From: a virus
Direction: 5' to 3' (one strand)
IMG/VR virus record: IMGVR_UViG_3300042327_000965
Location: 1-64,000 of that record
Length of the DNA: 64,000 bases
Position numbers and translations under genes: made by a program. Every line of letters starts with the position of its first letter. Position 1 is the first letter of the stretch. Of this stretch, positions 1 to 42,534 are shown piece after piece. The notes beneath the pieces are model-generated. The model did not search any database and had not been told where the DNA came from. It worked only from the letters and a program-made list of their open reading frames with translations.

Positions 1-143
1 CTCTCACCCGAAGTTCCATTCTCTCCCGAAGTTCCATTCTCACCCGAAGTTCCATTCTCACCTGAAGTTCCATTCTCGCCTGAAGTTCCATTCTCGCCTG
101 AAGTTCCATTCTCGCCTGAAGTTCCATTCTCTCCTGAAGTTCC
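1..143. repeat. 18-bp tandem repeat (GTSGEN codons)
   Basis: About eight head-to-tail copies of an 18-base unit (plus-strand form CCATTCTCNCCYGAAGTT) encode Gly-Thr-Ser-Gly-Glu-Asn on the minus strand. Copies differ mostly at third codon positions, such as TCTCCC, TCACCC and TCGCCT. The array runs off the left edge. Confidence 0.9.
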
Positions 144-419
144 GCTTTCACCACTTGACCCTGAGGTTCCTGAAGTTCCTGAAGTACCAGTTCCACCACC
201 TGAGGTTTTTAAGACTAAATCTAAGTCGGTAATACCACTAAGATACCAATATTCAACAATATCAGTTACTCCCGTTAAAATACCCACAGTTAATCCAATA
301 TATCTATTTGCGGTAATAACACTGGTGTTAGCAAATGTTGTACTAGAATATGGCCCAAACCTACTATCTAATGGTTTTGGTGAAAAAGTTGTTAAATTAT
401 CATTTATTATAATACCCAT
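1..419 (-). CDS. Gly-X-Y (GTSGEN) repeat fibre protein, N-terminal part, cut by window edge
   Basis: The minus frame opens with ATG at 419 and stays open to base 1, so at least 139 residues are present and the C-terminus lies outside the window. About 75 residues of non-repetitive sequence (start MGIIINDNLTTFSPKPL) lead into a collagen-like array, first GTSGTSGTSGSSGESG and then GTSGEN units. The array is read from at least eight 18-base tandem copies. The start lies four bases after the stop of the preceding fibre gene, suggesting co-transcription. By analogy with the two giant repeat proteins in this window it is probably a long fibre or whisker. Unlike them its visible repeats carry Glu and Asn at fixed positions. 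The true length is unknown. Confidence 0.75.
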   Translation of the reverse strand, partial: MGIIINDNLTTFSPKPLDSRFGPYSSTTFANTSVITANRYIGLTVGILTGVTDIVEYWYLSGITDLDLVLKTSGGGTGTSGTSGTSGSSGESGTSGENGTSGENGTSGENGTSGENGTSGENGTSGENGTSGENGTSGE

Positions 420-423
420 ATCT

Positions 424-1587
424 TTAAGAATTTCTTAGTTGCATTACGCCCGTTGTAGTTGTTTGATAATTAGAAATATAAATATCAAAATTTATGCTAC
501 TCCAGTAGCTGCTAGGACTTGTAACCGATTGAATTATCGGTGACCCAAATAAATTACCACTTCCACCAATACCACCACTATTCAATGAGTCAACAAACCA
601 AACAGTTTTGTCAGTATAATTTGAAAAGTGAGCAAACCATAGATATTCGGACGATGCGGCGAATGTGATATTAATAGTTCCTGATGCGGAAGATAGAACT
701 TTATTTGCCGAGTTTGCTTGTATTGCACTTGAGATACTACTTGCGTTTGGTAATGTACTTGATACCCCATAGAAAAATGGATAGATACCTGTATACGTCA
801 CCACCGAAGTTGCAAAATTATTTGACGAGTCTTGAGGTGCGTTAGTACTTCTAACTAACGGGGTTCGAGTATCATTAACACCTTTATTATTTTTTTTAAC
901 AACTCCCGCAAGATAATTACCATCGGCATTATAAGTTGTTGTCGTAGACTGATTACCACCTGTTGGTGCTGGTATAGTATAACTATCGGTATATGGGGAT
1001 GGACTTATTGTGAATCCCGAATTTGGATTGTTTAAATCCGTATAACCGAATTGTGCTGGTATGTCTGTTGCCGATGAACTTGATAATGTTGTGTCAGTTA
1101 AAATCGGTGTCCCATCTCTAAAAATCCTAAGTTGATTATAAATTCCTGCATCATTTTTAACCGCAGAAACCGTTATATTTGAGGTGAGATTTGACCCAAC
1201 CTCAACAGTTGAATTTGATACACCTCCTATTGATATTGTTGGTATTGTATATGTTGGGGGTTCTGTCGGGAATAGTAACTCGTCAAACAACGAAACAAAA
1301 GTTTTACCCGATAATTGAGCAACGGTGGTTCCTCCTGATAATCCACCAACGGCACTTGCCATAGAAATCGTAGGGTCTAATAAGGTATTATAAGTTGTGT
1401 ATAATACACCACCATCAACACCTAACCCCGTATTTGCCGAAATACTAATATTAGAACCCGTAAATGATGAAAAATATATTGCTTCAGTCCTTCCAGAACT
1501 TATAGGGTTATAATTAACGATTGCCAACAACGAGTCTGAATAACCTGTTGATGCTAAGGGGAGTGAGGATATTGGTAAATCTGCCAT
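424..1587 (-). CDS. putative tail-fibre/structural protein, 387 aa
   Basis: I do not recognise a named family. The protein is rich in Ser, Thr, Asn and Gly with few charged residues and many predicted beta-strand-like stretches, as in phage fibre and baseplate-peripheral proteins. It starts MADLPISSLPLASTGYSDSL, similar in style to phage fibre heads. The middle (residues about 110-240) has a TYTIPTISIGG segment and Thr/Ser-rich loops that could be an immunoglobulin-like fold. No signal peptide or membrane segment is seen. It sits in a minus-strand fibre module between a Thr-Pro-rich protein and a collagen-like protein, and a TATTTATA motif lies 8 bases before its ATG. Structural role is inferred from context and composition only. 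Confidence 0.6.
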   Translation of the reverse strand: MADLPISSLPLASTGYSDSLLAIVNYNPISSGRTEAIYFSSFTGSNISISANTGLGVDGGVLYTTYNTLLDPTISMASAVGGLSGGTTVAQLSGKTFVSLFDELLFPTEPPTYTIPTISIGGVSNSTVEVGSNLTSNITVSAVKNDAGIYNQLRIFRDGTPILTDTTLSSSSATDIPAQFGYTDLNNPNSGFTISPSPYTDSYTIPAPTGGNQSTTTTYNADGNYLAGVVKKNNKGVNDTRTPLVRSTNAPQDSSNNFATSVVTYTGIYPFFYGVSSTLPNASSISSAIQANSANKVLSSASGTINITFAASSEYLWFAHFSNYTDKTVWFVDSLNSGGIGGSGNLFGSPIIQSVTSPSSYWSSINFDIYISNYQTTTTGVMQLRNS

Positions 1588-2221: not shown

Positions 2222-2224
2222 TAC

Positions 2225-2232
2225 TATAAATA
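2225..2232 (-). promoter_or_regulatory. TATTTATA motif before gene 1628-2221
   Basis: TATTTATA followed by GTA and then the ATG on the minus strand. The same three-base gap and GTA are found at 49888-49898 on the other strand. Confidence 0.45.
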
Positions 2233-2313
2233 TACACCTGAACGGTTTACCATAAATAGATAATTAACTAAACTTGGGGTATAATTTTTGAGTTTTTATT
2301 TTATATTTTACTT

Positions 2314-4277: not shown

Positions 4278-4278
4278 T

Positions 4279-5232
4279 ATGAATAATATTTTTACAGTAA
4301 CTAATATTGAAGAGAATGGTATAATCCATTTTGACTTTAATGGTGATGACATAAAAGAAATATACGAGGTCTCAATTATTGATAACAATACGGGATTAAC
4401 CGTACATAAATCAAACATGGGGTTACGAAAAGGAACCAATTGGTGGATATCGACTGGTGAATCTAACGCAAAAAGACTTAGAAACATAACCTTATCCATT
4501 ATGTATGGTGACCTACAATATTCTCAGGAATTAAAACTATTTGGTCAAAATAGATTTTTAGTAATTAACTCAAAACAAGTTAAATTATCTCACTTGGGGG
4601 ATGATTTATTTCCAATTGTTACTGAGATTTTTTACGATAAAGTATATGAGAGGGATTTTGTTAGACTTAGCATCAATGATACGGTTGTTGATATTGGGGC
4701 GAATTACGGAGTATTCTCATTATACTCACAAATGTTTAACCCATCTAACGTTTATGCGGTAGAACCTCTTAAGGCTACATTTAAAAGTATGAAAAAGAAT
4801 CTTTCCGAACACGGAGTAACTTGTATTAATAAGGCGGTTAGTAATGAGAATGGGTTTGAGAAATTTATGATAACCGAAGTTAATGGTAATAATTTTTCAC
4901 AAAAAAACGAAAGTGGGTTTCACCCATCAACAGTGATTGGTGAAGAGATTGTTGAGACTATCACTATTAACCAATTAATTTCTGACTACGATATCGACAG
5001 AATTGATTTTTTAAAAGTTGATTGTGAAGGTGGTGAGTTGGATTTATTCCGAACAATTGATAAAGAATATTTACAAAATAATATTGGTAAAATTGCAATG
5101 GAATACCACTCAAAAGAAATTTACGATGAAGTTTTAGATATACTAAAATCAAACAACTTTATAATTGAGGATACTTTAGGGTCTAACGATATCGGATTAA
5201 TTTACGCATATAATATTAATTTAATAAAATAA
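4279..5232 (+). CDS. FkbM-family SAM-dependent methyltransferase with N-terminal beta domain, 317 aa
   Basis: FkbM-type enzymes methylate hydroxyl groups, often on sugars. The SAM-binding motif I is VVDIGANYGVFSLYS (about residues 135-149), followed by the acidic strand VYAVEPLKATF. The family motif IDFLKVDCEGGELDLF lies near residue 242. Residues 1-95 are an unrelated beta-rich segment resembling the accessory domain found at the C-terminus of neighbouring transferases. It begins one base after the previous stop and its own stop overlaps the next ATG. In this setting it probably caps or decorates the same glycan made by its neighbours. Family assignment is firm; the exact hydroxyl is not. 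Confidence 0.8.
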   Translation: MNNIFTVTNIEENGIIHFDFNGDDIKEIYEVSIIDNNTGLTVHKSNMGLRKGTNWWISTGESNAKRLRNITLSIMYGDLQYSQELKLFGQNRFLVINSKQVKLSHLGDDLFPIVTEIFYDKVYERDFVRLSINDTVVDIGANYGVFSLYSQMFNPSNVYAVEPLKATFKSMKKNLSEHGVTCINKAVSNENGFEKFMITEVNGNNFSQKNESGFHPSTVIGEEIVETITINQLISDYDIDRIDFLKVDCEGGELDLFRTIDKEYLQNNIGKIAMEYHSKEIYDEVLDILKSNNFIIEDTLGSNDIGLIYAYNINLIK

Positions 5233-7919
5233 TGAAAAAGAAAAAAATATTAGTTGTTTCTCCTCATTTAAGTACTGGAGGAGCGCCTCAAGTCACATTA
5301 AATAAAATACAATTAATTAACAATGAATATGAAATCAAATGTGTTGAGTACGCATTTGTTGCTTGGACGTTTGTCGTTCAAAGAAATCAAATACAAGAAT
5401 TACTTGGTGATAATTTCCATTCTTTAGGGGAAGATAAAAACGAGTTAATTAGAATTGTTAATGAGTTTAAACCTGATGTTGTTAGTATGGAAGAATTTCC
5501 TGAATTTTTCATGGATGATTCTGTCACAAAAGAATTATATAGGGAAGATAGGGAATACACAATATTTGAAACCACACATGATTCTAGTTTTTCTGTTTCA
5601 CATAAAAGATGGTTCCCCGATAAATTTATATTCGTAAGTGCGTATAACGCATTTAGATATTCTATATATGATATTCCGTATGACATTGTTGAATACCCTG
5701 TAGACTATAAAGAAAAAAATAAAAAACAAAACCAAGAATTATTAGATTTAGACCCAACATATAAACATGTTTTAAATGTTGGATTGTTCACGGCAAGAAA
5801 AAATCAATCCTATATTTTTGACATCGCACATAAATTAAAGGATTATAAAATAAAATTTCATTTTTTGGGTAATCAGGCCGAAAACTTCCAATCATATTGG
5901 GGTCCGTTGATTAAAAATAAACCTGATAACTGCGTTGTTTGGGGAGAAAGAAAAGACGTACAATCATTTATTGAAGCGTCGGACTTATTCTTGTTTCCTT
6001 CAAAAGGTGACAGAAACAATAAAGAATTAAACCCAATCGCCTTAAAAGAGGCTTTGGAGTATAGAATCCCAATGATGATGTATAACTTGGATGTTTATTG
6101 TGGAAAATACGATAAGTACGAAAATATAACATTTTTAACAGGAGATATTAATCATGATACATCAAAATTACTATCATTATTAAATCCTTATAAAGAAAAA
6201 TATGATAATAATGAGTTAGTTATTGTTGGTACTTATCCGAATACTAAATCACGAGAAAAATTAACTATCGAATGTATTAAGTCTGTTAAAAAATTAGGTC
6301 GAAAAGTAATGTTGGTTTCTCATTATCCAGTGTCGAACGATATTCAAAAAATGGTCGACTATTATATTTTTGATTCAAATAACCCAACAACAGAACATTC
6401 TTATTATACTAAGTTTTATAATTATAAATCAGAGTTTGATGTTGAGATTAACATTAACGGATTAAAAGATACTAACCAATCATTACCTGTTTTAACTAAT
6501 TTAATTAATGGGTTTAAATCCGCAAAAGATTTTAATTTTAATAAAGTATTTTACATAACCTACGATGTTATATTACATCATGATGATATTGAATATGTTA
6601 ATCAATCATTTAAATTGTTGGATGAAAAAGACGCATTCTTATGTACTTTACCTACGGCGTTTAATGTTGGTATTGAGACTACCGCAATGACGTTTAAAAC
6701 TGATTTCTTTTTAGAAAAATTTTCACATATAATAACTAAAGAAATTTACAAATCAGAATGTAGAATAAATAATTGTCAAAACTTCTTAGAGGATTTCTTT
6801 TATAAGAAATTAATTCACGAACCAACAGTTAATGTCATTACAAATGATAGTCATACATTCTTAATTAATTCAGGTAAAGGAGTCTCATCTAATTCAGAAT
6901 ACTATTCTATATTACCAATTATTAATAACGAGAATAAATGGGTGTTTTATTTCTACACATATAATATTGATGACAGAACAGTTAGTGTTGAGATTAATAA
7001 AAATAACGAAACCATTTATTCTAAATCATTTAATATTCTACAAACCCGAGAATTCTTAAAAGAAATTGACTACGATGGAGTTCCAATAGAGATTAAGTTA
7101 ACCTTTTTTGAGGGTGGAGTTCAATATAAATCAGAATCTTACATATTAAATAATGAAACAATAATTAGTTACAAAAATAATGGATGGTTTAAGTATAAAC
7201 GATTACCTAAAATTAAATTAGTTCATTTACAAACAACAAATAACGATGAGAGAGAAATCTTATCAAGAGAGTCGTTACAACAAGTATCAAAATACGGTAT
7301 TGAATATGTTTTACATACAAATGAACTATACAAATCTATACCTCCATCACATAATTGTGTTAGACCACAATGTGTGTCTATGGAACTTTTTGATGAAGAG
7401 ACAACAAACCGACTAGGTACTGCACTAACACCAGCACATTACGGATGTTTTGAATCATTTAAAAATGGTATTATATCTGAATTCGATAAAGATTTGGATT
7501 TCTTAATTGTTTGTGAGGGAGACTGTTTAATTGAGGTCCCTATTGAGGAATTCATTGATAAAGTTAAACAAGTGTGTGATACCGTTATCGAATCGGACAT
7601 ACAATATTTTTCATTTGGGGACACTAAAACATTAGACTTCGCTTGGCATCAATCAAATGTGATTAAAGAAATCCCGAACCAAGACTTGTTGTTTATTACT
7701 GATAAAATTATTGGGTTACAATGTATTATGTTCCCAAGAAAAACTAGAGAATTCTTATACGAACAATTACGTAATCATAAGTGGGATTGTGCTGACTCAT
7801 ATTTCAACCTTATTTTTATCGAACATGGGTTAAATATGGGTATTCTAAAAAACAGAATTACAACTCAAGCTGATGGAGTGTCATTAATCGATAAGGAATT
7901 TAAAACATTTATTAAGTAA
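5232..7919 (+). CDS. multi-domain glycosyltransferase (GT4-like + paralogous core + GT25-like), 895 aa
   Basis: Four parts are visible. Residues 1-325 resemble GT4 (ILVVSPHLSTGGAPQVTLNK at the start, LNVGLFTARKNQ in the middle, LNPIALKEALEYRIPMMMY as the C-terminal EX7E-like region). Residues 327-560 match the 7919 protein (GTYPNT; LVSHYPVS near residue 361; MVDYYIFD). Residues about 567-650 are the accessory beta domain. Residues 655-895 look GT25-like: LTPAHYGCFESF followed by DFLIVCEGDC, compared with the usual LT.GE.GC..SH and EDD. The acidic motif is EGD here. TAATG overlaps join it to both neighbours. It may add two or three sugars in sequence. Domain borders are by eye. Confidence 0.7.
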   Translation: MKKKKILVVSPHLSTGGAPQVTLNKIQLINNEYEIKCVEYAFVAWTFVVQRNQIQELLGDNFHSLGEDKNELIRIVNEFKPDVVSMEEFPEFFMDDSVTKELYREDREYTIFETTHDSSFSVSHKRWFPDKFIFVSAYNAFRYSIYDIPYDIVEYPVDYKEKNKKQNQELLDLDPTYKHVLNVGLFTARKNQSYIFDIAHKLKDYKIKFHFLGNQAENFQSYWGPLIKNKPDNCVVWGERKDVQSFIEASDLFLFPSKGDRNNKELNPIALKEALEYRIPMMMYNLDVYCGKYDKYENITFLTGDINHDTSKLLSLLNPYKEKYDNNELVIVGTYPNTKSREKLTIECIKSVKKLGRKVMLVSHYPVSNDIQKMVDYYIFDSNNPTTEHSYYTKFYNYKSEFDVEININGLKDTNQSLPVLTNLINGFKSAKDFNFNKVFYITYDVILHHDDIEYVNQSFKLLDEKDAFLCTLPTAFNVGIETTAMTFKTDFFLEKFSHIITKEIYKSECRINNCQNFLEDFFYKKLIHEPTVNVITNDSHTFLINSGKGVSSNSEYYSILPIINNENKWVFYFYTYNIDDRTVSVEINKNNETIYSKSFNILQTREFLKEIDYDGVPIEIKLTFFEGGVQYKSESYILNNETIISYKNNGWFKYKRLPKIKLVHLQTTNNDEREILSRESLQQVSKYGIEYVLHTNELYKSIPPSHNCVRPQCVSMELFDEETTNRLGTALTPAHYGCFESFKNGIISEFDKDLDFLIVCEGDCLIEVPIEEFIDKVKQVCDTVIESDIQYFSFGDTKTLDFAWHQSNVIKEIPNQDLLFITDKIIGLQCIMFPRKTREFLYEQLRNHKWDCADSYFNLIFIEHGLNMGILKNRITTQADGVSLIDKEFKTFIK

Positions 7920-8896: not shown

Positions 8897-9559
8897 ATGA
8901 AAAGAGATATTAGATTAGTTAGTATATTTAATAAACCAATGGTGGTATTTGATGGCCCTGAATGTATTTCAGATGACATAGTAAAATACAATAATTTTTG
9001 GGAATTTAAGATTGTTAACAAATGGTTACATTTTTTTCCTAAAAACGGTCTTTATCTGGATATTGGGGCTAACATAGGTAATCACTGCGTACAATTAAAA
9101 CATTATTTACCAAATATATCTATTTGGGCTTTTGAGCCGTATTTTGAAAATTATGAATTACTTAGATTAAACACTAAACAATTGGATAACGTACATTGTT
9201 TTTGTTTAGGTGTTGGTAGTTGTAATTCCATGGTACATTTCGACAATGGTCATGACTCTAATAGTGGTGTTGTTAAAGTAGTTGAGTATAGTAATAACAC
9301 TAATTTAGTAATTTCTTTAGATACATTTAATTTACCCGAACCCGTTAAGTTTATTAAAATTGATGTTGAGGGATTTGAAAAATCTTCGTTTGAAGGAATG
9401 GTTAATTTATTAGAAAAAGATAAACCGATGATTTGGTTAGAAGATATTGGTGGGGACGCGGTCACGTTTTTACTAATGAAAGATTATATCATTGTCGATT
9501 CTCAGGAAGAGAGTAGAGATTATTTAATGGTTCACATAACCAACAAACACAAATATTAA
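8897..9559 (+). CDS. FkbM-family SAM-dependent methyltransferase, 220 aa
   Basis: Short FkbM-type enzyme without the accessory domain. Motif I is LYLDIGANIGNHCVQL near residue 55, followed by IWAFEPYFENYELL as the acidic SAM-ribose strand. The family hallmark VKFIKIDVEGFEKSSFEGM lies near residue 151. Compared with the 317-aa paralogue it lacks the N-terminal beta segment. It begins immediately after the stop of the previous gene. Two different FkbM enzymes in one cluster suggest methylation at two positions, or of two sugars, of the same glycan (inference). Confidence 0.8.
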   Translation: MKRDIRLVSIFNKPMVVFDGPECISDDIVKYNNFWEFKIVNKWLHFFPKNGLYLDIGANIGNHCVQLKHYLPNISIWAFEPYFENYELLRLNTKQLDNVHCFCLGVGSCNSMVHFDNGHDSNSGVVKVVEYSNNTNLVISLDTFNLPEPVKFIKIDVEGFEKSSFEGMVNLLEKDKPMIWLEDIGGDAVTFLLMKDYIIVDSQEESRDYLMVHITNKHKY

Positions 9560-9560
9560 A

Positions 9561-10550: not shown

Positions 10551-10551
10551 T

Positions 10552-12654
10552 ATGAATATAACACAAGTAACACCAGGAATTATTTCCATACCCCCAAATG
10601 GATGGGGTGCCGTTGAAAAGATAATTTTTAACTACAATAACCATTTAAACTCATTAGGTCATATTTCTGATATAAAGTATTTAAATGGGGTTGACATTAA
10701 CAATACCGATATTGTTCACATTCATATCGCAAATTTAGCTATTGAAGCGTATGAACGAGGTATACCTTACATTTTTTCATTACACGACCATCATGTTGTG
10801 TATAATGGTAAAGATTCATTTAACTATCAACAAAATTTAGAAGCAATCCAAAAGTCTGTTATTTCATTTTGTCATGCGGAGTTCTTAGTGGATTACTTTA
10901 GTGAGACTGATAAATTATTTTATTTATCTCACGGAGTTGATACTAAATTCTTTAAAGTAGACCAACCTTATCGAACGGAACATAAATTATTGTGTTTAGC
11001 GAACAACGGTATTGGAGGAGACTCGTCTTACGATAGAAAAGGATTTAGATATGCTATTGAAGCGGCTAAGTCATTGGGGTTACCAATAACAATTGCTGGC
11101 CCTGAAAATAACCATAACTTTTTTGAACACCACAAAGACTTATTAGAATATGATAAGTTAACACTATTATTAACAAATCCAAATGAGGATGAGATATTAG
11201 AATTATACAAATCGCATTCAATTTTTCTACACCCATCTTGTTTAGAGGCGGGTCATCCTAATTTAACATTACTTGAAGCAATTTCTTGTGGAATACCAAT
11301 TGTTGGTACTTATAGTGGTACCCAAAAAATTAAAGGTATGATTGTTTGTGAACTTAACACTAATTCTGTCATAAACGGAATACAAGATATTATTAATAAT
11401 TATAATTTTTATGTGTCCCAAACACTGAAGAATAGAGAAAAATTTGATTGGTTGGTAATTTGTGAGCGTATGTTAAAAATGTATGAAGTAACTAAATTAA
11501 TTAAAAAAGAATATAACTCAAATGATACAAAAGAATTATTAGTTGATAATATTGAAAATACAGAAAAATTTGTACCTGTTGTTGAAGAAGATATTGATTG
11601 TGTTATACATTTCGTCAATAATCCTTTTTTAGAAATTAAAGGTTCTGGCGTAAAGTCATACAAAGTACAATTTTATGATAAAGAAAATTTATACTACTCA
11701 ACCGAGTTAAAACCAAATATGTGGACTAAACTATCTAGACAGTATTATACTGATTGGGATGTTAAAGTTCTTGATGGTGAGGAATTAATTTATGAATATA
11801 AACCAAATTTTATTAACAAAAGAGTATTCATTTCATTCGATTCTCGTTCTCTTGGGGATAGTATTGCTTGGATACCATATGTTTTAGAATTTAAGAAGAA
11901 ACACAATTGTCATGTTATTGTTTCAACATTTTGGAATAAGTTATTTGAAAAATCTTACTCTGAGATTGAGTTTGTTTCACCAGGAAGTACGGTTCATGAT
12001 TTAATTGGTATGTATACAATTGGGTGGTTCTATGATACAAATAAAGAACCCGAATTACCAAATACAATCCCATTACAAAAAGCAATAACAAATATTATTG
12101 GTTTAGAGTTTAACGAAATTAAACCAAACATTGATTTTATTCCATCAGAACGACCATTTACGGAAAAGTATATTACGATTGCAAATGAATCAACCGCGGG
12201 AGTTAAGTATTGGAATAATCCTAATGGGTGGAGGGAACTAATTGATTACTTAGTATCTAAAGGATATAGGGTCATTAATGTATCTAAAGAAAGTGACCGA
12301 ATGGATGGTGTGACAAAACTAAAGGACACGTCAATTGAGAACACAATGAATTGTATTCATCATAGTGAGTTCTTTATTGGTTTATCAAGTGGATTATCTT
12401 GGTTGACATGGGCATTAGGAAAACATGTTGTTATGATTTCTAACTTTACCGAACCTGACCATGAGTTTACTTCTAATTGCACAAGAATCACTAACCCATC
12501 AGTTTGTAACGGGTGTTGGAATAATCCAATGTTTAAATTTGATAAGGGTGATTGGAATTGGTGTCCTGAACATAAAGGAACAGAAAGACAGTTTGAATGC
12601 CATAAATCGATAACCTCTCAAATGGTTATTGACAGAATACAACATTTATTATAA
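10552..12654 (+). CDS. fused GT4-like transferase and TibC/BAHT-like protein O-heptosyltransferase, 700 aa
   Basis: Residues 1-315 resemble GT4 (VTPGIISIPPNGWGAVEKII; HLHP..LEAGHPNLTLLEA region near residue 225-245). Residues about 342-420 are the beta accessory domain. Residues 424-700 follow the bacterial autotransporter heptosyltransferase pattern: SRSLGDSIAWIPYVLEF, GLSSGLSWLTWALGK, and a four-cysteine motif (Cys652, 655, 671, 683) built as CNGCW...FDKGDWNWCPEHKGT.RQFEC. In that family (TibC, Aah) the cysteines bind iron and the enzyme O-glycosylates Ser/Thr of extracellular repeat proteins. The beta domain before the GT9-like half also fits the family's N-terminal layout. Located next to giant Ser/Thr repeat fibres. 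Family call from memory of the motif; sugar donor unknown. Confidence 0.75.
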   Translation: MNITQVTPGIISIPPNGWGAVEKIIFNYNNHLNSLGHISDIKYLNGVDINNTDIVHIHIANLAIEAYERGIPYIFSLHDHHVVYNGKDSFNYQQNLEAIQKSVISFCHAEFLVDYFSETDKLFYLSHGVDTKFFKVDQPYRTEHKLLCLANNGIGGDSSYDRKGFRYAIEAAKSLGLPITIAGPENNHNFFEHHKDLLEYDKLTLLLTNPNEDEILELYKSHSIFLHPSCLEAGHPNLTLLEAISCGIPIVGTYSGTQKIKGMIVCELNTNSVINGIQDIINNYNFYVSQTLKNREKFDWLVICERMLKMYEVTKLIKKEYNSNDTKELLVDNIENTEKFVPVVEEDIDCVIHFVNNPFLEIKGSGVKSYKVQFYDKENLYYSTELKPNMWTKLSRQYYTDWDVKVLDGEELIYEYKPNFINKRVFISFDSRSLGDSIAWIPYVLEFKKKHNCHVIVSTFWNKLFEKSYSEIEFVSPGSTVHDLIGMYTIGWFYDTNKEPELPNTIPLQKAITNIIGLEFNEIKPNIDFIPSERPFTEKYITIANESTAGVKYWNNPNGWRELIDYLVSKGYRVINVSKESDRMDGVTKLKDTSIENTMNCIHHSEFFIGLSSGLSWLTWALGKHVVMISNFTEPDHEFTSNCTRITNPSVCNGCWNNPMFKFDKGDWNWCPEHKGTERQFECHKSITSQMVIDRIQHLL

Positions 12655-13025
12655 TGAATATAGAAGTTTCAATTGGGGAAATAGTTGACAAATTAACTAT
12701 CCTAAGAATTAAAAAAAATAATATAACAGATAAAGGTAAACTTTTTAATGTTATTACAGAATACGATTATCTATATGATGTTGTATTTAATCAATTAAAA
12801 ATTGAATCAGATGATTTTTATAATCTATTATTGGTTAATGAACGTCTTTGGGATATTGAAGACCTTATTAGAGATAAAGAAAGAGATAAGGTATTTGACA
12901 CCGAATTCATAGAATTAGCTCGGTCCGTTTATGTAACAAACGATAAACGAGCAGAATTAAAGAAAGAGATTAATTTAAAATATGGGTCTCTTTTTGTTGA
13001 AGAGAAGTCATACAAGGAATATTAA
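12654..13025 (+). CDS. DUF6165-like protein, 123 aa
   Basis: The opening IEVSIGEIVDKLTILRIKKN is the characteristic start of DUF6165-type proteins, which are small, mostly helical and found beside glycosyltransferases in bacteria and phages. The rest is consistent with helices (LWDIEDLIRDKERDKVFDTE). No enzymatic motif is visible. TAATG overlap with the 700-aa transferase suggests a partner or regulatory role in the same complex. Last gene of the first glycosylation run; a bidirectional terminator follows. Family name from memory; biochemical function is unknown. Confidence 0.7.
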   Translation: MNIEVSIGEIVDKLTILRIKKNNITDKGKLFNVITEYDYLYDVVFNQLKIESDDFYNLLLVNERLWDIEDLIRDKERDKVFDTEFIELARSVYVTNDKRAELKKEINLKYGSLFVEEKSYKEY

Positions 13026-22560: not shown

Positions 22561-25500
22561 TTAGAAGACAATCCTTGTTCCTACACTTATATCCCAAGTT
22601 CCGCCTCCAATTGCTGCGTACAACTCAAGATTTGAACCTATAATTACTGTGTAGAATTTAACCGCCACCGTTGAAGCGTTTAAATCAGGTGTTGAACTAT
22701 CAGTAAATGCCGTATTAGTTCCGTCCCACACTGTCATAATAATACCACTTCTCATCGCGTTTGTTCCAGAATCGTATACGTAATAATCAAATGTTGCACT
22801 TGAACCTGATGCGAATGGAAAACGACAAATTAATGTTGTTGTTGTAACACCTGTTTCTCTACATGATTGTAATGACTGATTACCTTGTTCAATAGTGTCA
22901 CCTGTTATTCCTAAAGTAGTACCATCAAAGGTTAAATTAGGTTCTGATGTTATACCACCCGCACCATCTGAAGTTAATACTTCATTATCATTACCTGATA
23001 CGACAGGAGATAAACCACTTGTACCTGAAGAACCTGATGTCCCACTTGTCCCTGATGTCCCACTAGTTCCTTGCAAACCACTTGTTCCGCTCGTACCCGT
23101 AGTTCCCGAAGAACCACTTGTACCCGATGTTCCTGAAGAACCGCTTGTTCCTGATGAACCAGAACTACCTGATGTTCCGCTTGAGCCCGAACTACCCGAT
23201 GTTCCTGATGAGCCACTCGTACCTGAAGTTCCGCTCGTACCCGATGTTCCTGAACTACCTGACGTACCCGATGTTCCTGAACTACCTGACGTACCCGATG
23301 TTCCTGAAGAACCACTTGTTCCTGATGTTCCACTACTTCCTGATGTACCTGCAGTTCCACTTGAACCCGATGTTCCTGAAGAACCTGAAGACCCGCTTGT
23401 TCCTGAAGAACCTGACGTTCCACTTGTACCACTAGACCCTGAACTACCTGAGGAACCACTTGAACCTGATGTTCCACTTGTACCCGCAGTTCCTGAAGAA
23501 CCCGAACTACCACTAGAACCTGATGTTCCCGATGTTCCACTACTTCCGCTTGTACCCGCGGTTCCTGATGAACCCGATGTTCCACTACTCCCTGAAGTTC
23601 CTGATGAACCTGAACTACCTGATGTTCCGCTTGTACCCGCAGTTCCTGATGAACCACTTGTTCCTGAACTACCCGAAGAACCCGAAGTTCCACTACTTCC
23701 ACTAGAACCTGATGAACCCGAAGAACCGCTTGACCCCGATGTTCCACTACTTCCACTTGTACCCGCAGTTCCTGAAGAACCGCTACTTCCTGAAGAACCA
23801 CTTGACCCCGATGAACCGCTTGTTCCTGAACTACCCGATGTTCCACTACTTCCGCTTGTGCCTGATGTACCTGCAGTTCCTGAAGAACCGCTTGTTCCTG
23901 ATGTTCCTGAAGACCCCGAACTACCACTAGAACCTGAAGACCCCGAACTACCACTTGAACCTGAAGTTCCGCTAGTTCCTGAAGAACCACTTGACCCCGA
24001 CGAACCTGAACTTCCTGACGTTCCACTAGTACCCGCAGTTCCTGAAGAGCCGCTACTACCGCTTGAACCTGAACTACCTGAAGTTCCTGATGAACCACTT
24101 GAACCTGATGAACCGCTACTACCACTTGAGCCAGACGTACCTGAAGTTCCTGATGAACCTGATGTACCTGCAGTTCCTGAAGAACCACTTGTCCCACTAG
24201 ACCCTGATGAACCTGATGAGCCACTTGAACCTGAACTACCGCTAGTGCCTGATGTACCCGAGCTACCACTTGTTCCTGACGAACCACTTGTTCCACTTGA
24301 GCCCGAACTACCTGATGAACCTGATGTTCCTGATGAGCCACTCGTACCTGAAGTTCCGCTAGTTCCTGAAGAACCTGATGAGCCACTCGTACCTGAAGAA
24401 CCGCTAGTTCCTGAAGAACCTGAAGTTCCACTAGTTCCTGAAGAACCACTTGTCCCCGACGTTCCTGAACTACCCGATGTACCACTTGAACCTGAACTAC
24501 CTGACGTTCCCGATGTTCCACTACTTCCACTAGAACCTGAACTACCACTAGAACCTGATGTTCCACTTGTACCTGAAGAACCGCTTGACCCTGATGTTCC
24601 ACTACTTCCACTTGTACCTGCAGTACCTGAAGAACCGCTTGACCCCGATGAACCGCTTGTCCCACTAGACCCTGATGAACCTGAACTACCACTAGAACCT
24701 GAACTTCCTGATGTACCTGAACTTCCGCTAGTACCTGATGTTCCGCTAGTCCCACTTGTACCCGCAGAACCTGAAGTTCCTGATGACCCGTTAGTTCCTG
24801 ATGAACCACTTGAACCTGAAGTTCCGCTAGTTCCTGAAGAACCACTTGTCCCTGACGTACCTGAACTTCCGCTAGTTCCTGATGAACCACTTGTACCTGA
24901 TGTTCCGCTAGTACCTGATGTTCCTGAAGAACCACTTGTCCCTGACGTACCTGAACTTCCGCTAGTTCCTGAAGAACCACTTGAACCTGATGACCCTGAA
25001 CTTCCACTAGTTCCTGAAGTACCACTTGAACCTGAAGTTCCGCTAGTTCCTGAACTTCCGTTAGTTCCTGATGAACCACTTGTTCCTGATGAACCACTTG
25101 TTCCTGATGAACCACTTGTTCCTGATGAACCGCTTGTTCCTGAAGTACCCGAAGAACCTGACGTTCCACTTGTTCCCGATGAACCACTTGAACCCGATGT
25201 TCCTGATGAACCATTAGTTCCTGAAGTACCCGAAGAACCTGACGTTCCACTTGTTCCCGATGAACCACTTGTACCTGAACTACCGCTAGTTCCTGATGAA
25301 CCTGAACTTCCTGACGTTCCGCTTGTACCCGCAGTACCTGACGAACCACTAGACCCTGAACTTCCTGATGAACCTGAACTTCCTGATGTTCCACTTGTTC
25401 CGCTAGACCCTGAAGAACCGCTTGACCCCGATGTTCCGCTAGTTCCTGATGAACCACTAGTTCCTGACGAACCTGAAGTACCACTTGAACCTGATGTTCC

Positions 25501-28500
25501 TGAAGAACCCGATGTTCCTGAAGAACCATCTGTTCCGCTAGTTCCTGACGAACCACTTGAACCTGATGTCCCCGATGAACCTGAACTACCGCTAGTGCCT
25601 GATGTACCCGAGCTACCACTTGTTCCTGACGAACCACTTGAACCTGATGACCCGCTTGTACCTGAAGACCCACTTGTTCCACTAGAACCTGATGTCCCAC
25701 TTGACCCTGAAGTTCCTGATGAGCCACTTGTTCCGCTTGAACCAGATGTACCACTTGTTCCTGATGAACCATTTACACCACTAATACCACTTGAGCCTGA
25801 AGTTCCGCTACTACCATCCGTTCCTGATGAACCATCTGTTCCACTTGTACCTGAACTACCGTCAGTTCCGCTTGTTCCTGAAGTTCCACTTGACCCATCT
25901 GTTCCTGATGAACCATCTGTTCCACTAGTACCTGATGTTCCTGATGAACCATCTGTTCCACTAGTACCTGATGTTCCTGATGAGCCATCCGTACCTGAAG
26001 TACCACTAGTTCCTGAAGAACCATCTGTACCACTTGTTCCGCTAGTTCCTGAAGAACCATCAGTTCCGCTAGTTCCTGAAGAACCATCAGTTCCACTTGT
26101 ACCTGAACTACCATCAACACCACTTAATCCACTTGAACCTGATGTTCCTGAAGTACCTGAACTACCGCTAGTTCCTGATGAACCTGAACTTCCACTTGTT
26201 CCCGATGAACCATCAGTACCTGAAGTACCACTAGTTCCCGAAGAACCATCTATTCCTGAAGTTCCTGAAGAACCATCAACACCACTTAATCCGCTTGAAC
26301 CCGATGTTCCTGAAGAACCATCAGTTCCGCTTGTTCCTGATGAACCATCGGTTCCACTAGTACCTGATGTTCCTGAAGAGCCGTCTGTACCTGAAGTTCC
26401 TGAAGAACCGTCTGTTCCTGATGTTCCTGAAGAACCGTCTGTTCCTGAAGTTCCACTTGTTCCTGAAGAACCATCGGTTCCACTTGTTCCTGAAGAACCA
26501 TCGGTTCCACTAGTACCTGATGTTCCTGAAGAGCCGTCTGTACCTGAAGTACCACTACTTCCTGAAGAACCATCAGTTCCCGAACTTCCGCTAGTTCCTG
26601 AAGAGCCGTCTGTACCTGATGTACCGCTAGTTCCTGAAGAGCCGTCTGTACCTGATGTACCACTAGTTCCTGAAGAACCATCAGTTCCTGAACTCCCACT
26701 AGTCCCTGAAGAACCATCTGTTCCGCTTGTTCCTGAAGAACCATCTGTTCCTGAAGTACCTGAACTTCCACTTGTTCCTGAAGAACCATCTGTTCCGCTT
26801 GTTCCTGAAGAACCGTCAACACCACTTAATCCACTTGAACCTGATGTTCCACTACTCCCATTAGTTCCACTTGTTCCTGAACTACCATCTGTTCCTGAAG
26901 TTCCACTAGTACCTGAAGAGCCATCTGTTCCCGAAGTTCCTGAAGAACCATCTGTTCCTGATGAACCATCTGTTCCGCTAGTTCCTGATGAACCATCTGT
27001 TCCACTAGTACCTGAAGTACCTGATGAACCATCTGTTCCGCTAGTGCCTGAAGAACCGTCAGTTCCGCTTGTTCCTGAACTACCATCCGTACCGCTTGTT
27101 CCTGAACTACCATCAGTCCCACTTGTTCCTGACGAACCACTTGTTCCTGATGAACCATCTGTTCCTGAAGAACCACTGGTCCCCGATGAACCGTTAGTAC
27201 CGCTTGTTCCTGATGAACCATTCACACCACTAATACCACTTGAACCTGACGAACCTGACGAGCCATCTGTCCCGCTAGTTCCTGAAGAACCGTCAGTACC
27301 ACTTGTTCCTGAACTTCCTGAAGAACCGCTAGTCCCTGAAGAACCATCCGTTCCACTTGTTCCTGAAGAACCATCTGTACCTGAACTTCCACTAGTTCCT
27401 GAACTTCCACTAGTTCCTGAAGAACCATCTGTTCCTGAACTACCGTCAGTTCCGCTAGTTCCTGAAGAACCATCAACACCACTTAATCCACTTGAACCCG
27501 AGGTTCCTGAACTACCATCTGTCCCACTTGTACCTGATGTACCGCTAGTTCCTGAAGAGCCGTCTGTACCTGATGTACCACTAGTTCCTGAAGAACCATC
27601 AGTTCCTGAACTCCCACTAGTCCCTGAAGAACCGTCAGTTCCGCTTGTACCTGAAGAACCATCAACACCGCTTAATCCGCTTGACCCCGATGTTCCTGAA
27701 GAACCATCAGTTCCGCTAGTTCCTGAACTACCGTCAGTACCCGAACTTCCACTTGTTCCCGATGACCCATCTGTTCCTGAAGTACCTGATGAACCATCTG
27801 TCCCTGAAGTACCTGAAGAACCATCTGTTCCACTAGTACCTGAACTACCATCTGTTCCACTTGTTCCTGAGGAACCGCCTGAACCTGAAGAACCGCTTGT
27901 ACCAGAACTTCCACTTGTACCTGAAGAACCATCAGTACCCGAACTTCCACTTGTACCTGAAGAACCATCAGTTCCGCTTGTTCCTGAAGAACCATCAGTA
28001 CCGCTAGTTCCTGAAGAACCACTTGACCCCGATGTTCCTGAAGTACCTGAACTACCGTCAGTACCGCTAGTTCCTGATGAACCATCTGTTCCTGAAGTAC
28101 CTGAACTTCCACTTGTTCCTGAAGAACCATCTGTTCCTGAAGTACCTGAAGAACCATCAACACCACTTAATCCACTTGAACCTGATGTTCCACTTGTTCC
28201 TGAAGAACCATCTGTTCCGCTTGTTCCACTAGTACCTGAAGAACCATCAGTTCCGCTTGTTCCTGAAGAACCATCAGTACCGCTAGTTCCTGAAGAACCG
28301 TCTGTTCCGCTTGTTCCTGAAGAACCGTCAACACCACTTAATCCACTTGAACCTGATGTTCCACTTGTTCCCGATGACCCATCTGTTCCGCTAGTTCCAC
28401 TTGTTCCTGATGAACCATCTGTTCCGCTAGTTCCTGAAGAACCGTTAGTACCACTAGTTCCTGATGAACCATCTGTTCCTGAACTACCGCTTGTCCCTGA

Positions 28501-38038: not shown

Positions 38039-39259
38039 ATGAAAGAAAAAATTAATGTTTTAGTACTACCAAGTGATAAAAGTGGTGTTGGGAAATTTCG
38101 TTCTATCGACCCTCACGTACATTTACAAAATTTATATCCTGACGACTTCCATTTAGACATTGACTACGAACCAAAAATCAATGACCCAAATTATTGGAAA
38201 AAATATCAAATCGTTCACGTACATAGAAATATTGGTAGTAATTACGACAATACTCCACTAATCATTAGAAAGTTAAAATCACTAGGAATTATCGTTATTG
38301 TTGACATTGATGATTATTGGTTACCAACAAAAGAACATCCTATTCATCAAATAATTGTTCAACAAAAAATTAACGAAAAAATTGTTGCAAACTTAAAAGA
38401 AGCTGATTATGTTACAACAACAACAGATATTTTTGCAAATGAAATTAGAAGGTTTAATAAAAATGTTGTTGTATTCCCCAATGCAATTAACCCAAAAGAA
38501 CCTCAATTCAATCAACCAACCGTTGAATCAGATAGAATTAGAGTTGGGTGGTTAGGTGGCTCATCTCACTTACATGATTTAATGTTACTACAAGGGTTCA
38601 CTCAAAGAAATGGTAAGGACATTAATGACAAAATTCAATATGTTATTTGTGGGTTTGATACTCGTGGTACTGTTACTGAGATTAATCCACAAACGGGGGA
38701 ACAAAAACGTAGAGACATTTTACCTCACGAAACTGTGTGGGCAAAATATGAAGAGATTTTTACAAACAATTATAATTTAGTTGATGAGGATTATAAAAAA
38801 TTCTTAATGGAATATAAAGAACAAGATTATGTTTCAAATAAAGAATTACCTTATCTTAGAGTTTGGACAAAACCTGTTACCACATATGCAATGAATTATT
38901 CTAAATTTGATATTTCATTAGCTCCAATCAAAAATCACGTCTTTAATAGAATGAAATCTCAGTTAAAAGTTATTGAAGCAGGATTTTATAAGAAAGCGTT
39001 AATCGCGTCTGAAATAGGTCCATATACAATCGACTTGAAACATTGTATGAAGAATGGTAACTTTGTTGATGGTAATGCTTTATTAGTCGGTGAGCAAAGA
39101 AATCATAGTGATTGGTCGAAACACATCAAAAAGTTAGTTCAAAACCCTAATTTGATTACAGATATGGGAGAAAGATTATATGAAACGGTTAAAGACAAAT
39201 ACGATTTAAATACCGTAACAAAAAATAGAGCAGAATTTTATAAATCATTAATTAAATAA
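38039..39259 (+). CDS. glycosyltransferase (GT4/GT-B-like), 406 aa
   Basis: GT-B-type transferase of the kind common in large phages. N-terminus INVLVLPSDKSGVGKFRSID carries the Gly-containing loop; IVHVHRN and IIVIVDIDDYW are Rossmann strands; ADYVTTTT and VVVFPNAINP lead to the second domain, which starts IRVGWLGGSSHLHDLMLL. The C-terminal donor-site region is FDISLAPIKNHVFNRMKSQLK followed by KVIEAGFYKKALIAS. Full-length. First gene after a terminator, so it probably has its own promoter, though I could not identify one. Its next neighbour is a cytidylyltransferase, suggesting an activated donor made nearby. Donor and acceptor unknown. Confidence 0.8.
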   Translation: MKEKINVLVLPSDKSGVGKFRSIDPHVHLQNLYPDDFHLDIDYEPKINDPNYWKKYQIVHVHRNIGSNYDNTPLIIRKLKSLGIIVIVDIDDYWLPTKEHPIHQIIVQQKINEKIVANLKEADYVTTTTDIFANEIRRFNKNVVVFPNAINPKEPQFNQPTVESDRIRVGWLGGSSHLHDLMLLQGFTQRNGKDINDKIQYVICGFDTRGTVTEINPQTGEQKRRDILPHETVWAKYEEIFTNNYNLVDEDYKKFLMEYKEQDYVSNKELPYLRVWTKPVTTYAMNYSKFDISLAPIKNHVFNRMKSQLKVIEAGFYKKALIASEIGPYTIDLKHCMKNGNFVDGNALLVGEQRNHSDWSKHIKKLVQNPNLITDMGERLYETVKDKYDLNTVTKNRAEFYKSLIK

Positions 39260-41034: not shown

Positions 41035-42534
41035 ATGATAACAATAATTTATTCAACCCATAAAGACGAAACTTATAATAACAAATTTAAACAACATTTG
41101 TTACAAACTGTTGGATTAAAACATGTTCAGATTTTAGAGTTTCAGAACAATAATCAATACAGTTTGGCTGAGGTATATAACAAAGGTATATCACAATCAA
41201 TTTATGATATTGTGGTTTGTTGTCATAACGACATCAAATTAGAAAATAATTGGGGTAAGAAATTATTTAAAGATTTCGAAAATAACCCTGATTACGGAAT
41301 CATTGGGAAGGCAGGGTCAACATATTTTCCTGAATCAGGAGTCTATTGGGAACGAATGGCTCAAACAATGGTTGGTCATGTATATCACCAACCTGAGGGT
41401 CGTAAAAAATGGGTTAATAAGTATTCCGCAAAATTAGATGAATTAACACCAGTAGTGACTATTGATGGTTTATTCATTTCATTCGATAAAACAAAAATAA
41501 AACATAATTTTAATGAGACTATTGGTAAGTTTCATTTTTATGACCACCCATTCTGTTTAAGTAATTATTTAGACGGGGTAAAAATTGGGGTTACATTTTC
41601 TTTTGATATTACCCACCAATCAGTTGGACGACCAAATGAGGAATTTTTTGAAAGTAAAACTAAATTTTTAGAGAAGTTCTCGTCTAAATTGCCATTAGAC
41701 TTAAAACCAAACAGTATTTACGTTCCTAAAATAAACGAAAAACCAACTAAAAATATTGGTAAAGTTTCGGTAATTATACCAACAAAAGATAAGTTCGAAT
41801 TAATAAGTGAATGTATTCTATCTTTTTACGAACATTGTAACCCTAATTTATTTGACATTTTTATCGCCGACACTGGGTCAACTGATGAAAATAAAGAAAA
41901 ACTTAAATCATTTATTTCTGATTATAATAATATTAAATTAATTGAATATGATTATTATAATTTTGCAAAAATTAATAATGATGTGGTTAAAAACCATCTA
42001 AATAACACTCACGAATATTTGTTATTTTGTAATAATGATATTAAATTATTAAACAACGTTATTTATGGTATGTTAAAAATATTCAAAACAACTCCAAAAG
42101 TTGGTACTGTCGGTTGTCGTCTACATTATTTAGATAATACCGTACAACATGATGGTATGGTAATTTATATTCATAACAATATAATACAATTAACACATTC
42201 GGGATTAAAAGGATATTATACTTATACACCATCAATAAAAAAAGTATTGGGGTCTACTGCAGCTCTATTAATGATTAATAAAACCATATTTGAAAAGTGT
42301 GGTTATTTTAACGAAAATTATCAAACTTGTTTAGAGGATGCGGAATTAAACATCAAATGTCTTTCATTAGGTCTAAATAATTATTATGACGGTAATTTAG
42401 TTGCTTATCACTATGAGAGTCAAACCAGAGGAGATAATGATGATAATTACCGTCAAGATTACATTAACACTTTTTATCCTTTTATGATTAAAAACGAAAA
42501 CAATATTAAACCTTTTATATTTAAATTAAACTAA
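41035..42534 (+). CDS. two-domain glycosyltransferase (StrF-like GT2_5 + GT2), 499 aa
   Basis: Residues 1-225 resemble the Glyco_tranf_2_5/StrF-type domain (IIYSTHKDETYNNKFKQHLL; SLAEVYNKGISQSIYDIVV followed by CHNDIKLE). Residues about 240-490 are a second GT2: KVSVIIPTKDKFELISECIL, IADTGSTDENKEKL, YLLFCNNDIKLL, VGTVGCRLHYLDN and a final LEDAELNIKC that includes the ED-type catalytic position. Length is suitable for a bifunctional enzyme. It begins one base after the dUTPase stop region and overlaps the next gene (TAATG). Likely builds part of the same glycan as the following aminosugar genes (inference). Confidence 0.8.
   Translation: MITIIYSTHKDETYNNKFKQHLLQTVGLKHVQILEFQNNNQYSLAEVYNKGISQSIYDIVVCCHNDIKLENNWGKKLFKDFENNPDYGIIGKAGSTYFPESGVYWERMAQTMVGHVYHQPEGRKKWVNKYSAKLDELTPVVTIDGLFISFDKTKIKHNFNETIGKFHFYDHPFCLSNYLDGVKIGVTFSFDITHQSVGRPNEEFFESKTKFLEKFSSKLPLDLKPNSIYVPKINEKPTKNIGKVSVIIPTKDKFELISECILSFYEHCNPNLFDIFIADTGSTDENKEKLKSFISDYNNIKLIEYDYYNFAKINNDVVKNHLNNTHEYLLFCNNDIKLLNNVIYGMLKIFKTTPKVGTVGCRLHYLDNTVQHDGMVIYIHNNIIQLTHSGLKGYYTYTPSIKKVLGSTAALLMINKTIFEKCGYFNENYQTCLEDAELNIKCLSLGLNNYYDGNLVAYHYESQTRGDNDDNYRQDYINTFYPFMIKNENNIKPFIFKLN

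What the first reader, a model, noticed from the sequence alone, without database searches (positions are those of the whole stretch)
10552..12654. TibC/BAHT-like protein O-glycosyltransferase beside giant Ser/Thr fibres: a phage self-glycosylation system
The C-terminal half of this 700-aa protein has the motif CNGCW...FDKGDWNWCPEHKGT.RQFEC, which I recognise as the iron-binding Cys signature of bacterial autotransporter O-heptosyltransferases that glycosylate Ser/Thr in repeat proteins. It lies between two blocks of fibre genes whose products are almost pure Gly-Ser/Thr-Ser repeats (13057-30222). A system in which a phage builds a glycan with about a dozen encoded transferases and two or more methyltransferases, then coats its own fibres, would be novel.
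Basis: partly seen in the sequence, partly recalled or inferred. Interest (0 to 1): 0.88.

Follow-up and report, generated by a model that had tools for sequence, protein, structure and literature searches.

The report
Phage enzyme for sugar-coating collagen-like fibres
A virus of bacteria carries an enzyme, kin to one that sugar-coats bacterial adhesins, beside giant collagen-like proteins, and the same pairing recurs in other viruses and in some bacteria, so the enzyme very likely decorates those proteins.

Summary
The 700-aa protein at 10552-12654 has a GT4 glycosyltransferase half and a TibC-like half (TIGR04414, 285 bits, cut-off 200; model on TibC at Z 37.6). Four iron-finger Cys and catalytic Asp, Thr, Lys are invariant in 63 of 63 distinct phage domains. 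The two ORFs beside it (13057-30222) are Gly-Ser/Thr-Ser triplet (collagen-like) shafts with almost no proline.

The new part came from comparison. A tree of 92 TIGR04414 domains splits in two (100/100). TibC's side: 0 of 66 loci have a Gly-S/T-S ORF in their flanks, and ten neighbours I picked all carry the known acceptor repeat TIGR04415. The window's side: 14 of 14 cellular-genome loci have such an ORF, eight being unfused gammaproteobacterial enzymes within 1 kb of a small Gly-S/T-S protein; so do 35 of 37 phage contigs; TIGR04415 is absent from all 48 records and genomes searched. Most phage members lack TibC's thumb hairpin and its adenine-reading Arg.

Best reading: a sister subfamily whose acceptor switched to collagen-like shafts. 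Glycosylation is inferred. Against: two enzyme records without a shaft (636 kb and 79 kb), and shafts in phages without a detected enzyme.

The parts
10552..12654 (+). GT4 + TibC-like fusion, 700 aa; GT4 half about residues 1-319, TibC-like half about 347-700
   Evidence: TIGR04414 285.3 bits; PF00534/PF13692; AlphaFold model, VIA Z 37.6 to TibC over 347 residues and Z up to 23.6 to other GT-B transferases over residues 1-315
11590..12651 (+). TibC-like catalytic domain with N-terminal beta-barrel; equivalents of TibC D110, T226, K230, W305 at D436, T548, K552, W617; R286 replaced by T598; thumb hairpin absent
   Evidence: alignments; residue roles from eLife e03714 passages
12505..12600 (+). 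iron-finger module, Cys 652, 655, 671, 683
   Evidence: invariant in 63 of 63 distinct phage and 80 of 80 genome-contig domains
13057..22410 (-). giant G-[S/T]-S shaft protein 1, 3117 aa, presumed fibre and acceptor
   Evidence: 852 G-X-Y triplets, X = S/T in 815, Y = S in 787; non-shaft parts at the N-terminus, in the middle and at the C-terminus
22561..30222 (-). giant G-[S/T]-S/D shaft protein 2, 2553 aa, presumed fibre and acceptor
   Evidence: 784 triplets, X = T/S in 746, Y = S in 644, D in 103
3..434 (-). third G-T-S gene, (GTSGEN)n, cut by the contig start
2314..3255 (+). GT9-type (heptosyltransferase-like) transferase
   Evidence: PF01075 55 bits
3252..4277 (+). possible GT2-like protein, weak match under its cut-off
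   Evidence: PF00535 20.7 bits, cut-off 23.3
4279..5232 (+). FkbM-type methyltransferase
   Evidence: TIGR01444 98.5 bits, cut-off 37.7
5232..7919 (+). 895-aa GT4-type transferase
   Evidence: PF00534 40.7 bits
7919..8896 (+). operon member, no family found
   Evidence: NCBIfam and Pfam
8897..9559 (+). FkbM-type methyltransferase
   Evidence: TIGR01444 68.5 bits
9561..10550 (+). operon member, no family found
   Evidence: NCBIfam and Pfam
12654..13025 (+). 123-aa ORF overlapping the end of the enzyme gene, no clear family
   Evidence: only weak PHROG matches
38039..39259 (+). phage-type glycosyltransferase, second sugar cluster
   Evidence: phrog_7162 157.8 bits
39261..39719 (+). nucleotidyltransferase; fits heptose-1-P adenylyltransferase and glycerol-3-P cytidylyltransferase equally
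   Evidence: 69.8 and 69.2 bits, both far under their cut-offs
41035..42534 (+). two-domain GT2 transferase
   Evidence: PF13712 84.3 and PF00535 59.2 bits
43160..43777 (+). third methyltransferase
   Evidence: PF13578 76 bits
43865..44422 (+). hexapeptide acyltransferase, NeuD-like
   Evidence: PF00132; TIGR03570 below cut-off
44788..45498 (+). GT2 transferase
   Evidence: PF00535 43.8 bits
48312..49124 (+). GT2 transferase
   Evidence: PF00535 30.2 bits
61296..63167 (-). major head protein, identifies the record as a phage
   Evidence: phrog_138 226.9 bits

Best explanation
The TibC-like half is a protein O-glycosyltransferase that puts a first sugar on Ser/Thr of the phage's own collagen-like (Gly-Ser/Thr-Ser) shafts; the GT4 fused to it, and the other transferases and methyltransferases of the operon, then extend and cap the glycan. 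It belongs to a sister clade of the bacterial autotransporter heptosyltransferases (BAHT) whose acceptor changed from beta-helical strand-loop-strand repeats to Gly-X-Y shafts, and whose phage members mostly lost the thumb hairpin that closes the TibC ring. Shown: kinship, intact catalytic and iron-finger residues, thumb loss, genetic pairing with the shaft in phages and in bacteria, absence of the classical acceptor repeat from the records searched. Inferred: that the reaction happens, its donor sugar, its order, and that the shaft proteins are virion fibres.
For: Family and fold. D110, T226, K230 and the four Cys kept in 63 of 63 distinct phage domains, the window's among them. Neighbour rule, classical side: 10 of 10 scanned neighbours of classical enzymes carry the known acceptor repeat TIGR04415 above cut-off (picked by me for closeness from 14 listed, out of 66 classical loci; first 980 residues scanned). 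Same rule, this clade: 14 of 14 genome-contig loci have a Gly-S/T-S ORF, against 0 of 66 classical loci; in eight gammaproteobacterial loci it lies within 1 kb. Phages: 35 of 37 enzyme-bearing contigs of 40 kb or more hold the strict repeat, against 0 of 11 enzyme-free contigs drawn by head protein (2 of the 9 checked with a looser test). Within 10 kb the shaft ORF is downstream in 29 of 41 clusters with 5 kb of downstream sequence, always on the opposite strand, and upstream in 4 of 39. TIGR04415 is absent from 38 of 38 enzyme-bearing phage records and from the window's record and nine whole genomes. Fusion: of 51 phage enzymes scanned, 43 also match GT4-type models (PF00534), 5 an FkbM and 7 another methyltransferase model.
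Against: LR756504 (636 kb) has the enzyme domain but no strict repeat anywhere and no shaft ORF in the 41 kb around it; contig G059 (79 kb, L025) has the enzyme and no shaft by either test. Of 37 repeat-selected contigs, 20 have no TIGR04414 match; in the GT2-marker control 6 of 39 contigs without an enzyme over the cut-off have the repeat; with the looser test two near-alike enzyme-free head-protein contigs, G047 and G048, have a large shaft. So shafts occur without a detected enzyme, though these are fragments. 2 of 6 GT2-marker contigs with the enzyme lack the strict repeat, but have a looser one. The switch maps to one branch of the tree, so loci are not independent. No glycoprotein has been seen, and the shaft proteins are not proven virion parts.
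Confidence: 0.76

Rival explanations
1. The cluster alters the host's surface polysaccharide (O-antigen or capsule conversion, superinfection exclusion) and the TibC-like domain is just another sugar transferase in it.
For: Many GT2, GT4 and GT9 genes and methyltransferases lie together; such conversion is common in phages (established knowledge).
Against: No flippase, polymerase or undecaprenyl-phosphate priming transferase is named among the hits of the window proteins that I scanned; several scanned ORFs have no match and some small ORFs (for example 46966-47241, 49899-50276, 52192-52404, 58647-59726) were not scanned. The known members of TIGR04414 act on proteins, and the gammaproteobacterial enzymes of this clade lie beside a Gly-S/T-S protein (further neighbours of three of them were listed but not scanned).
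Confidence: 0.1
2. Protein glycosylation, but of another virion protein (for example the Pro-Thr linker protein at 1631-2263 or the head), with the shaft gene next door by chance or as part of a fibre module.
For: Pro-Thr-rich linkers exist in the window and in L456; the enzyme lies among presumed structural genes; 20 of 37 shaft contigs lack a detected enzyme; LR756504 and G059 have the enzyme but no shaft.
Against: In eight gammaproteobacterial loci the enzyme's neighbour is a small protein, seven with a lipobox-like start by eye, whose common part is the Gly-S/T-S stretch; I saw no phage fibre there, though the wider neighbours were not scanned. Of 43 shaft proteins compared, only 110 of 903 pairs share detectable non-shaft similarity (32 fall in one linked group), so the shaft is what recurs.
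Confidence: 0.12
3. The enzyme glycosylates modified bases of phage DNA, as other viral glycosyltransferases do.
For: Phage glycosyltransferases are reported to act on DNA (statement in PMC12619734 passages).
Against: The domain is nearest to a protein O-glycosyltransferase; no hydroxymethylase or base-hypermodification gene was recognised among the window proteins scanned.
Confidence: 0.02

Closest known systems
BAHT enzymes TibC/AAH with TibA/AIDA-I (TIGR04414 with TIGR04415 acceptors)
   Same: same fold (Z 37.6), catalytic residues, iron finger, gene beside a repetitive Ser/Thr-bearing surface-type protein
   Different: thumb stretch shortened in the phage members, adenine-reading Arg mostly replaced there, usually fused to GT4, neighbour repeat is Gly-Ser/Thr-Ser instead of strand-loop-strand
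Mycobacteriophage virion glycosylation (Freeman 2023; not held; seen only as cited in PMC12619734 passages)
   Same: phage glycans on virion proteins
   Different: there on capsid and tail-tube C-termini; here a BAHT-type enzyme beside collagen-like shafts
Phage collagen-like fibre proteins, e.g. EPclA (PMC3368898 passages)
   Same: Gly-X-Y shafts with non-collagenous ends in phage fibre-type proteins
   Different: those have Pro in close to half of X positions, and the recombinant protein tested was unglycosylated; these have almost no Pro, with Ser/Thr in nearly all X and most Y positions
Glycosylated prokaryotic collagen-like and Ser-rich repeat proteins (BclA; SRR adhesins with GtfA/B; recalled, no call, apart from SdgB structures listed)
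   Same: dense O-glycosylation of low-complexity Ser/Thr stalks
   Different: different enzymes (GT4 and others) and hosts

Membership tests
BAHT (bacterial autotransporter heptosyltransferase) | sequence over the TIGR04414 cut-off | tested here: met
   285.3 bits against 200
BAHT (bacterial autotransporter heptosyltransferase) | TibC fold with beta-barrel and catalytic lobes; catalytic base D110, donor-site T226, K230, W305 | tested here: met
   model on TibC Z 37.6, rmsd 2.3, 347 residues; D, T, K 63 of 63, W 62 of 63. Pfam's TibC_1st model (N-terminal domain) matched only 1 of 51 members
BAHT (bacterial autotransporter heptosyltransferase) | four-Cys iron finger | tested here: met
   63 of 63 distinct phage domains; metal binding itself not testable here
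BAHT (bacterial autotransporter heptosyltransferase) | beta-hairpin thumb (F265/V266 tip) that joins dimers into the dodecamer | tested here: not met
   stretch is 15 residues in the window against 25 in 66 of 66 classical loci; tip residues missing in the alignment with TibC; no hairpin assigned there in the model
BAHT (bacterial autotransporter heptosyltransferase) | Arg286, adenine contact giving ADP-sugar specificity | tested here: not met
   Thr598; in phages T 50, V 7, R 2, A 2, I 1, L 1 of 63; R in 75 of 80 genome-contig loci
BAHT (bacterial autotransporter heptosyltransferase) | partner with TIGR04415 strand-loop-strand repeats | tested here: not met
   0 in G000 (a 68-kb record that may be a fragment) and 0 of 38 enzyme-bearing phage records; E. 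coli control rings
BAHT (bacterial autotransporter heptosyltransferase) | transfers heptose to Ser/Thr of a protein | not testable with these tools
   needs biochemistry
Collagen-like protein (acceptor) | uninterrupted Gly-X-Y repeats | tested here: met
   852 and 784 triplets in runs of six or more
Collagen-like protein (acceptor) | forms a triple helix | not testable with these tools
   almost no Pro (17 and 8 residues in the whole proteins), so a bare triple helix is doubtful; polyglycine-II packing is an alternative (recalled)
LPS/O-antigen locus | flippase, polymerase and lipid-linked priming transferase | tested here: inconclusive
   none named among the hits, but several ORFs have no family match and some small ones were not scanned

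The most novel reading that the evidence does not exclude
A second, unrecognised branch of the BAHT family builds sugar-stabilised collagen-like rods: O-glycans on Ser/Thr take the structural place of hydroxyproline in proline-free Gly-Ser/Thr-Ser shafts, in large phages (bundled with GT4 elongation and sometimes methyl capping in one polypeptide) and in gammaproteobacteria (lipoprotein stalks), with a ring-less enzyme that processes rods thousands of residues long and, in most phages, a donor other than ADP-heptose.
Probability: 0.4. Interest if true: 0.92.

Novelty: new variant of a known kind. Interest (0 to 1): 0.82.

Why it matters
It gives a common but unexplained class of phage proteins (giant Gly-Ser/Thr repeats) a likely modifying enzyme, shows an acceptor switch inside a structurally well-known glycosyltransferase family, and predicts a minimal two-gene bacterial module (an enzyme of about 373-427 aa plus a repeat protein of about 113-237 aa) that can be tested in E. 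coli. It would also mean that many large phages may display a self-made, methyl-capped glycan on their fibres, with consequences for host recognition, defence evasion and glycan-engineered fibres.

Tried and rejected
Considered and rejected: chance motif match (curated model, fold and residue conservation exclude it); frame artefact: the shaft ORFs have long antisense ORFs (15926-22129 +, 22895-29980 +), but it is the - frame whose non-shaft parts have homologues in other phages and, in bacteria, lipobox- or signal-peptide-like starts; recent DNA tandem duplication alone: Ser at Y is coded by both AGY and TCN, and neighbouring Y-Ser codons are identical less often than expected (0.281 against 0.372; 0.212 against 0.347).

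Led nowhere: structure of the C-terminal domain of shaft 1 (three sequences, pLDDT 43.6, unusable); PHROG names for the non-shaft parts (unknown-function matches and one weak structural one, 16.4 bits); class-wide search for more bacterial members (2 of 369 genomes over the cut-off, both already known). The Gly-WSN pattern was in 16 of those 369 genomes, the two included, but its backward control rang in about 17 (my count), so in cellular genomes the pattern alone says nothing and only its place beside the enzyme does. In the phage sets the backward control rang in 0 of 50 and 2 of 45. Literature on the cultured phage Mel-JY01: 0 papers. Paper searches for BAHT/TibC with phage, phage glycosylation, collagen-like or polyglycine phage fibres and glycosylated Riftia collagen listed no paper whose title or shown start of abstract describes a TibC-like phage enzyme or this pairing; I read passages of PMC4358343, PMC12619734 and PMC3368898 only, in an open-licence library, so absence from print is not shown.

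Limits found on re-check: 'thumbless' is not exact for the whole clade: among the 14 genome-contig members the stretch is 15-16 in nine, 21 in three, 27 in two. Statistics treat loci as independent, which they are not; the trait maps to one branch. The looser shaft test that found shafts in G100 and G117 was at first run only on enzyme contigs; run later on 9 of the 11 enzyme-free head-protein contigs (some a little short of full length) it found shafts in 2 (G047, G048, alike), and none in G059; it was not run on G039, G040 or the 39 GT2-marker contigs without enzyme. Two GT2-marker contigs with weak enzyme matches (G123, G125; 108-114 bits) have no strict repeat.
Full report
1. Observation. 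The ORF at 10552-12654 (+) encodes 700 residues with the quoted Cys motif. TIGR04414 matches residues 370-698 at 285.3 bits (cut-off 200); the only PDB sequences matched at E 0.01 are the two TibC entries; residues 1-319 are a GT4-type transferase. AlphaFold on 22 sequences gives a confident C-terminal half (mean pLDDT 76.9 overall, mostly over 85 from about residue 350) that lies on TibC with Z 37.6, rmsd 2.3 over 347 residues (Foldseek TM-score by target about 0.8, by the whole query about 0.46). The record is a virus record of 68,132 bases with a phage major head protein.

2. The neighbours. The ORFs at 13057-22410 and 22561-30222 (-) are Gly-X-Y shafts: 852 and 784 triplets, X Ser or Thr in 815 and 746, Y Ser in 787 and 644 (with Asp in 103 of the second), 1734 and 1439 Ser+Thr in all, Pro 17 and 8. 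Ser at Y is written with both AGY and TCN codons and adjacent codons are identical less often than expected, which suggests that the protein pattern, not the DNA, is being kept. A third such gene is cut by the contig start. Upstream lies a tightly packed operon of transferases and two FkbM methyltransferases (2314-12654), and a second sugar cluster lies at 38-49 kb.

3. Relatives in viruses. A scan of viral contigs gave 210 relatives; the best 80 were kept. D110, T226, K230 and the four Cys of TibC are invariant in 63 of 63 distinct domains (the window, loci and three named phage records), W305 in 62 (residue roles from passages of eLife e03714). The TibC-like domain stands at the C-terminus behind changing partners: of 51 members scanned (four of 55 left out, three cut at the 5' end and LR756504's), 43 match GT4-type models, 5 FkbM and 7 other methyltransferase models. 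Of 37 enzyme contigs of 40 kb or more, chosen from the 80 with most near-copies left out, 35 hold the Gly-[S/T]-[S/T] pattern. Of the other two, L076's contig ends 2.3 kb downstream of the enzyme; L025's contig (G059) begins inside the enzyme gene and has no shaft in its 79 kb by the looser test either, a true exception as far as it reaches. After clustering at 95% (52 clusters), the shaft ORF lies downstream in 29 of 41 clusters with 5 kb of downstream sequence, always convergent, and upstream in 4 of 39. In named records, Mel-JY01 and the 735-kb LR756501 have both; LR756504 (636 kb) has the enzyme but no repeat.

4. Controls in phages. Drawn by the window's head protein (13 of 80, the longest): the 2 with the enzyme have the strict repeat, the 11 without have none; but with the looser test 2 of 9 of these 11, G047 and G048, which are near-alike, have a shaft with over 2,200 residues in runs and a lower Ser/Thr share. 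Drawn by a GT2 gene (45 of 80): 6 have the enzyme over the cut-off, 10 the repeat, 4 both, 33 neither; the two enzyme contigs without the strict repeat (G100, G117) have a looser G-T-N/G-T-S shaft, a test not run on the 39 others. The association is clear in direction but not exclusive: shafts occur in phage contigs with no detected enzyme, and contigs are fragments.

5. Relatives in cells, and the substrate switch. A genome-contig scan gave 205 relatives; the best 80 were kept. The tree (thumb columns removed; 48 phage rows thinned at 90% identity, 14 genome-contig rows, 30 of the 66 classical rows) splits 100/100 into a classical side and a side with all phage rows and the 14; in a quick tree with TibC added, TibC falls on the classical side. 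On the classical side 0 of 66 loci have a Gly-S/T-S ORF (30 or more residues in runs) in their flanks of up to 10 kb; on the other 14 of 14 do. Some of these 14 (L292, L293, L297, L299, with long fusions, and perhaps L298) may be phage contigs in metagenome bins, but eight are unfused enzymes of 373-427 aa in Gammaproteobacteria, within 1 kb of small Gly-S/T-S proteins, seven with a lipobox-like start by eye and one (L304) with a signal-peptide-like start; L294 is looser (5 kb). As a check that the neighbour of a BAHT tends to be its acceptor, ten neighbours of classical enzymes were scanned over 980 residues each and 10 of 10 carry TIGR04415, the strand-loop-strand acceptor repeat, over its cut-off (I chose these ten of the 14 for closeness and likeness to autotransporters; L310, L319, L341 and L346 were not scanned). 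That repeat is absent from 38 of 38 enzyme-bearing phage records, from the window's record and from nine whole genomes that carry this clade's enzyme; the E. coli control rings in both.

6. Changes in the enzyme. Arg286, which reads adenine in TibC, is Thr in 50 of 63 phage domains and Arg in only 2; it stays Arg in 7 of the 8 gammaproteobacterial members and in LR756501. So ring assembly and, in most phages, the donor nucleotide are predicted to differ from TibC.

7. How it most likely works (inferred). The TibC-like half primes Ser/Thr of the nascent or assembled shaft; the fused GT4 and operon transferases extend; FkbM-type methyltransferases cap. A proline-free Gly-Ser/Thr-Ser chain is expected to be a poor bare triple helix; Thr glycosylation is named as a means of collagen stabilisation (PMC3368898 passage), so the glycan may be structural as well as a coat. 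Known phage collagens, rich in Pro at X and unglycosylated as recombinant protein, fit this contrast.

8. Limits. No biochemical datum; the shaft proteins are not shown to be in virions; the tip domain could not be modelled; the acceptor switch is one event on the tree, so small P values overstate the evidence; two exceptions with enzyme and no shaft (LR756504, G059), and shafts without a detected enzyme. It is filed as a sister clade of the BAHT family, not as a BAHT, because thumb, adenine contact and classical acceptor were tested and not met.

Noticed in passing
window 3-434 (-): A third Gly-Thr-Ser gene, (GTSGEN)n with an 18-bp tandem repeat, is cut by the start of the contig.
   Followed up: partly
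window 1631-2263 (-); L456 3603-5582 (-): Pro-Thr-rich linkers (PTPTPTP...) in proteins near the cluster, another possible O-glycan acceptor.
   Followed up: no
L021 17028-21074 (-): A 1349-aa ORF downstream of the enzyme with STISGGGQNTASG-type repeats resembling YadA-type adhesin heads (recalled likeness, not tested) where other loci have a Gly-S/T-S shaft.
   Followed up: no
L518 12474-20000 (+), L521 10149-20000 (+): Two near-alike phage contigs (G047, G048) without a detected TIGR04414 enzyme carry a shaft ORF of over 2,500 residues in which Ser/Thr make up only about 69% of X and Y; what, if anything, modifies it is open.
   Followed up: no
window 39261-39719 (+): Nucleotidyltransferase that fits heptose-1-phosphate adenylyltransferase and glycerol-3-phosphate cytidylyltransferase equally (69.8 and 69.2 bits); a clue to the donor sugar.
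   Followed up: partly
L082 1-3052 and 9446-9628 (Mel-JY01): The deposited annotation puts small - strand CDSs over what reads as Gly-S/T-S coding on the + strand; such shafts may be missed in annotation.
   Followed up: partly
window 42534-43163 (+): A 209-aa ORF matching only near the N-terminus (72 residues) of DegT-type sugar aminotransferases, perhaps a remnant or a new architecture.
   Followed up: no
L300, L302, L305: Two different Gly-Ser lipoprotein-like genes lie near one enzyme in three gammaproteobacterial loci, one mostly repeat and one with an added non-repeat part.
   Followed up: partly
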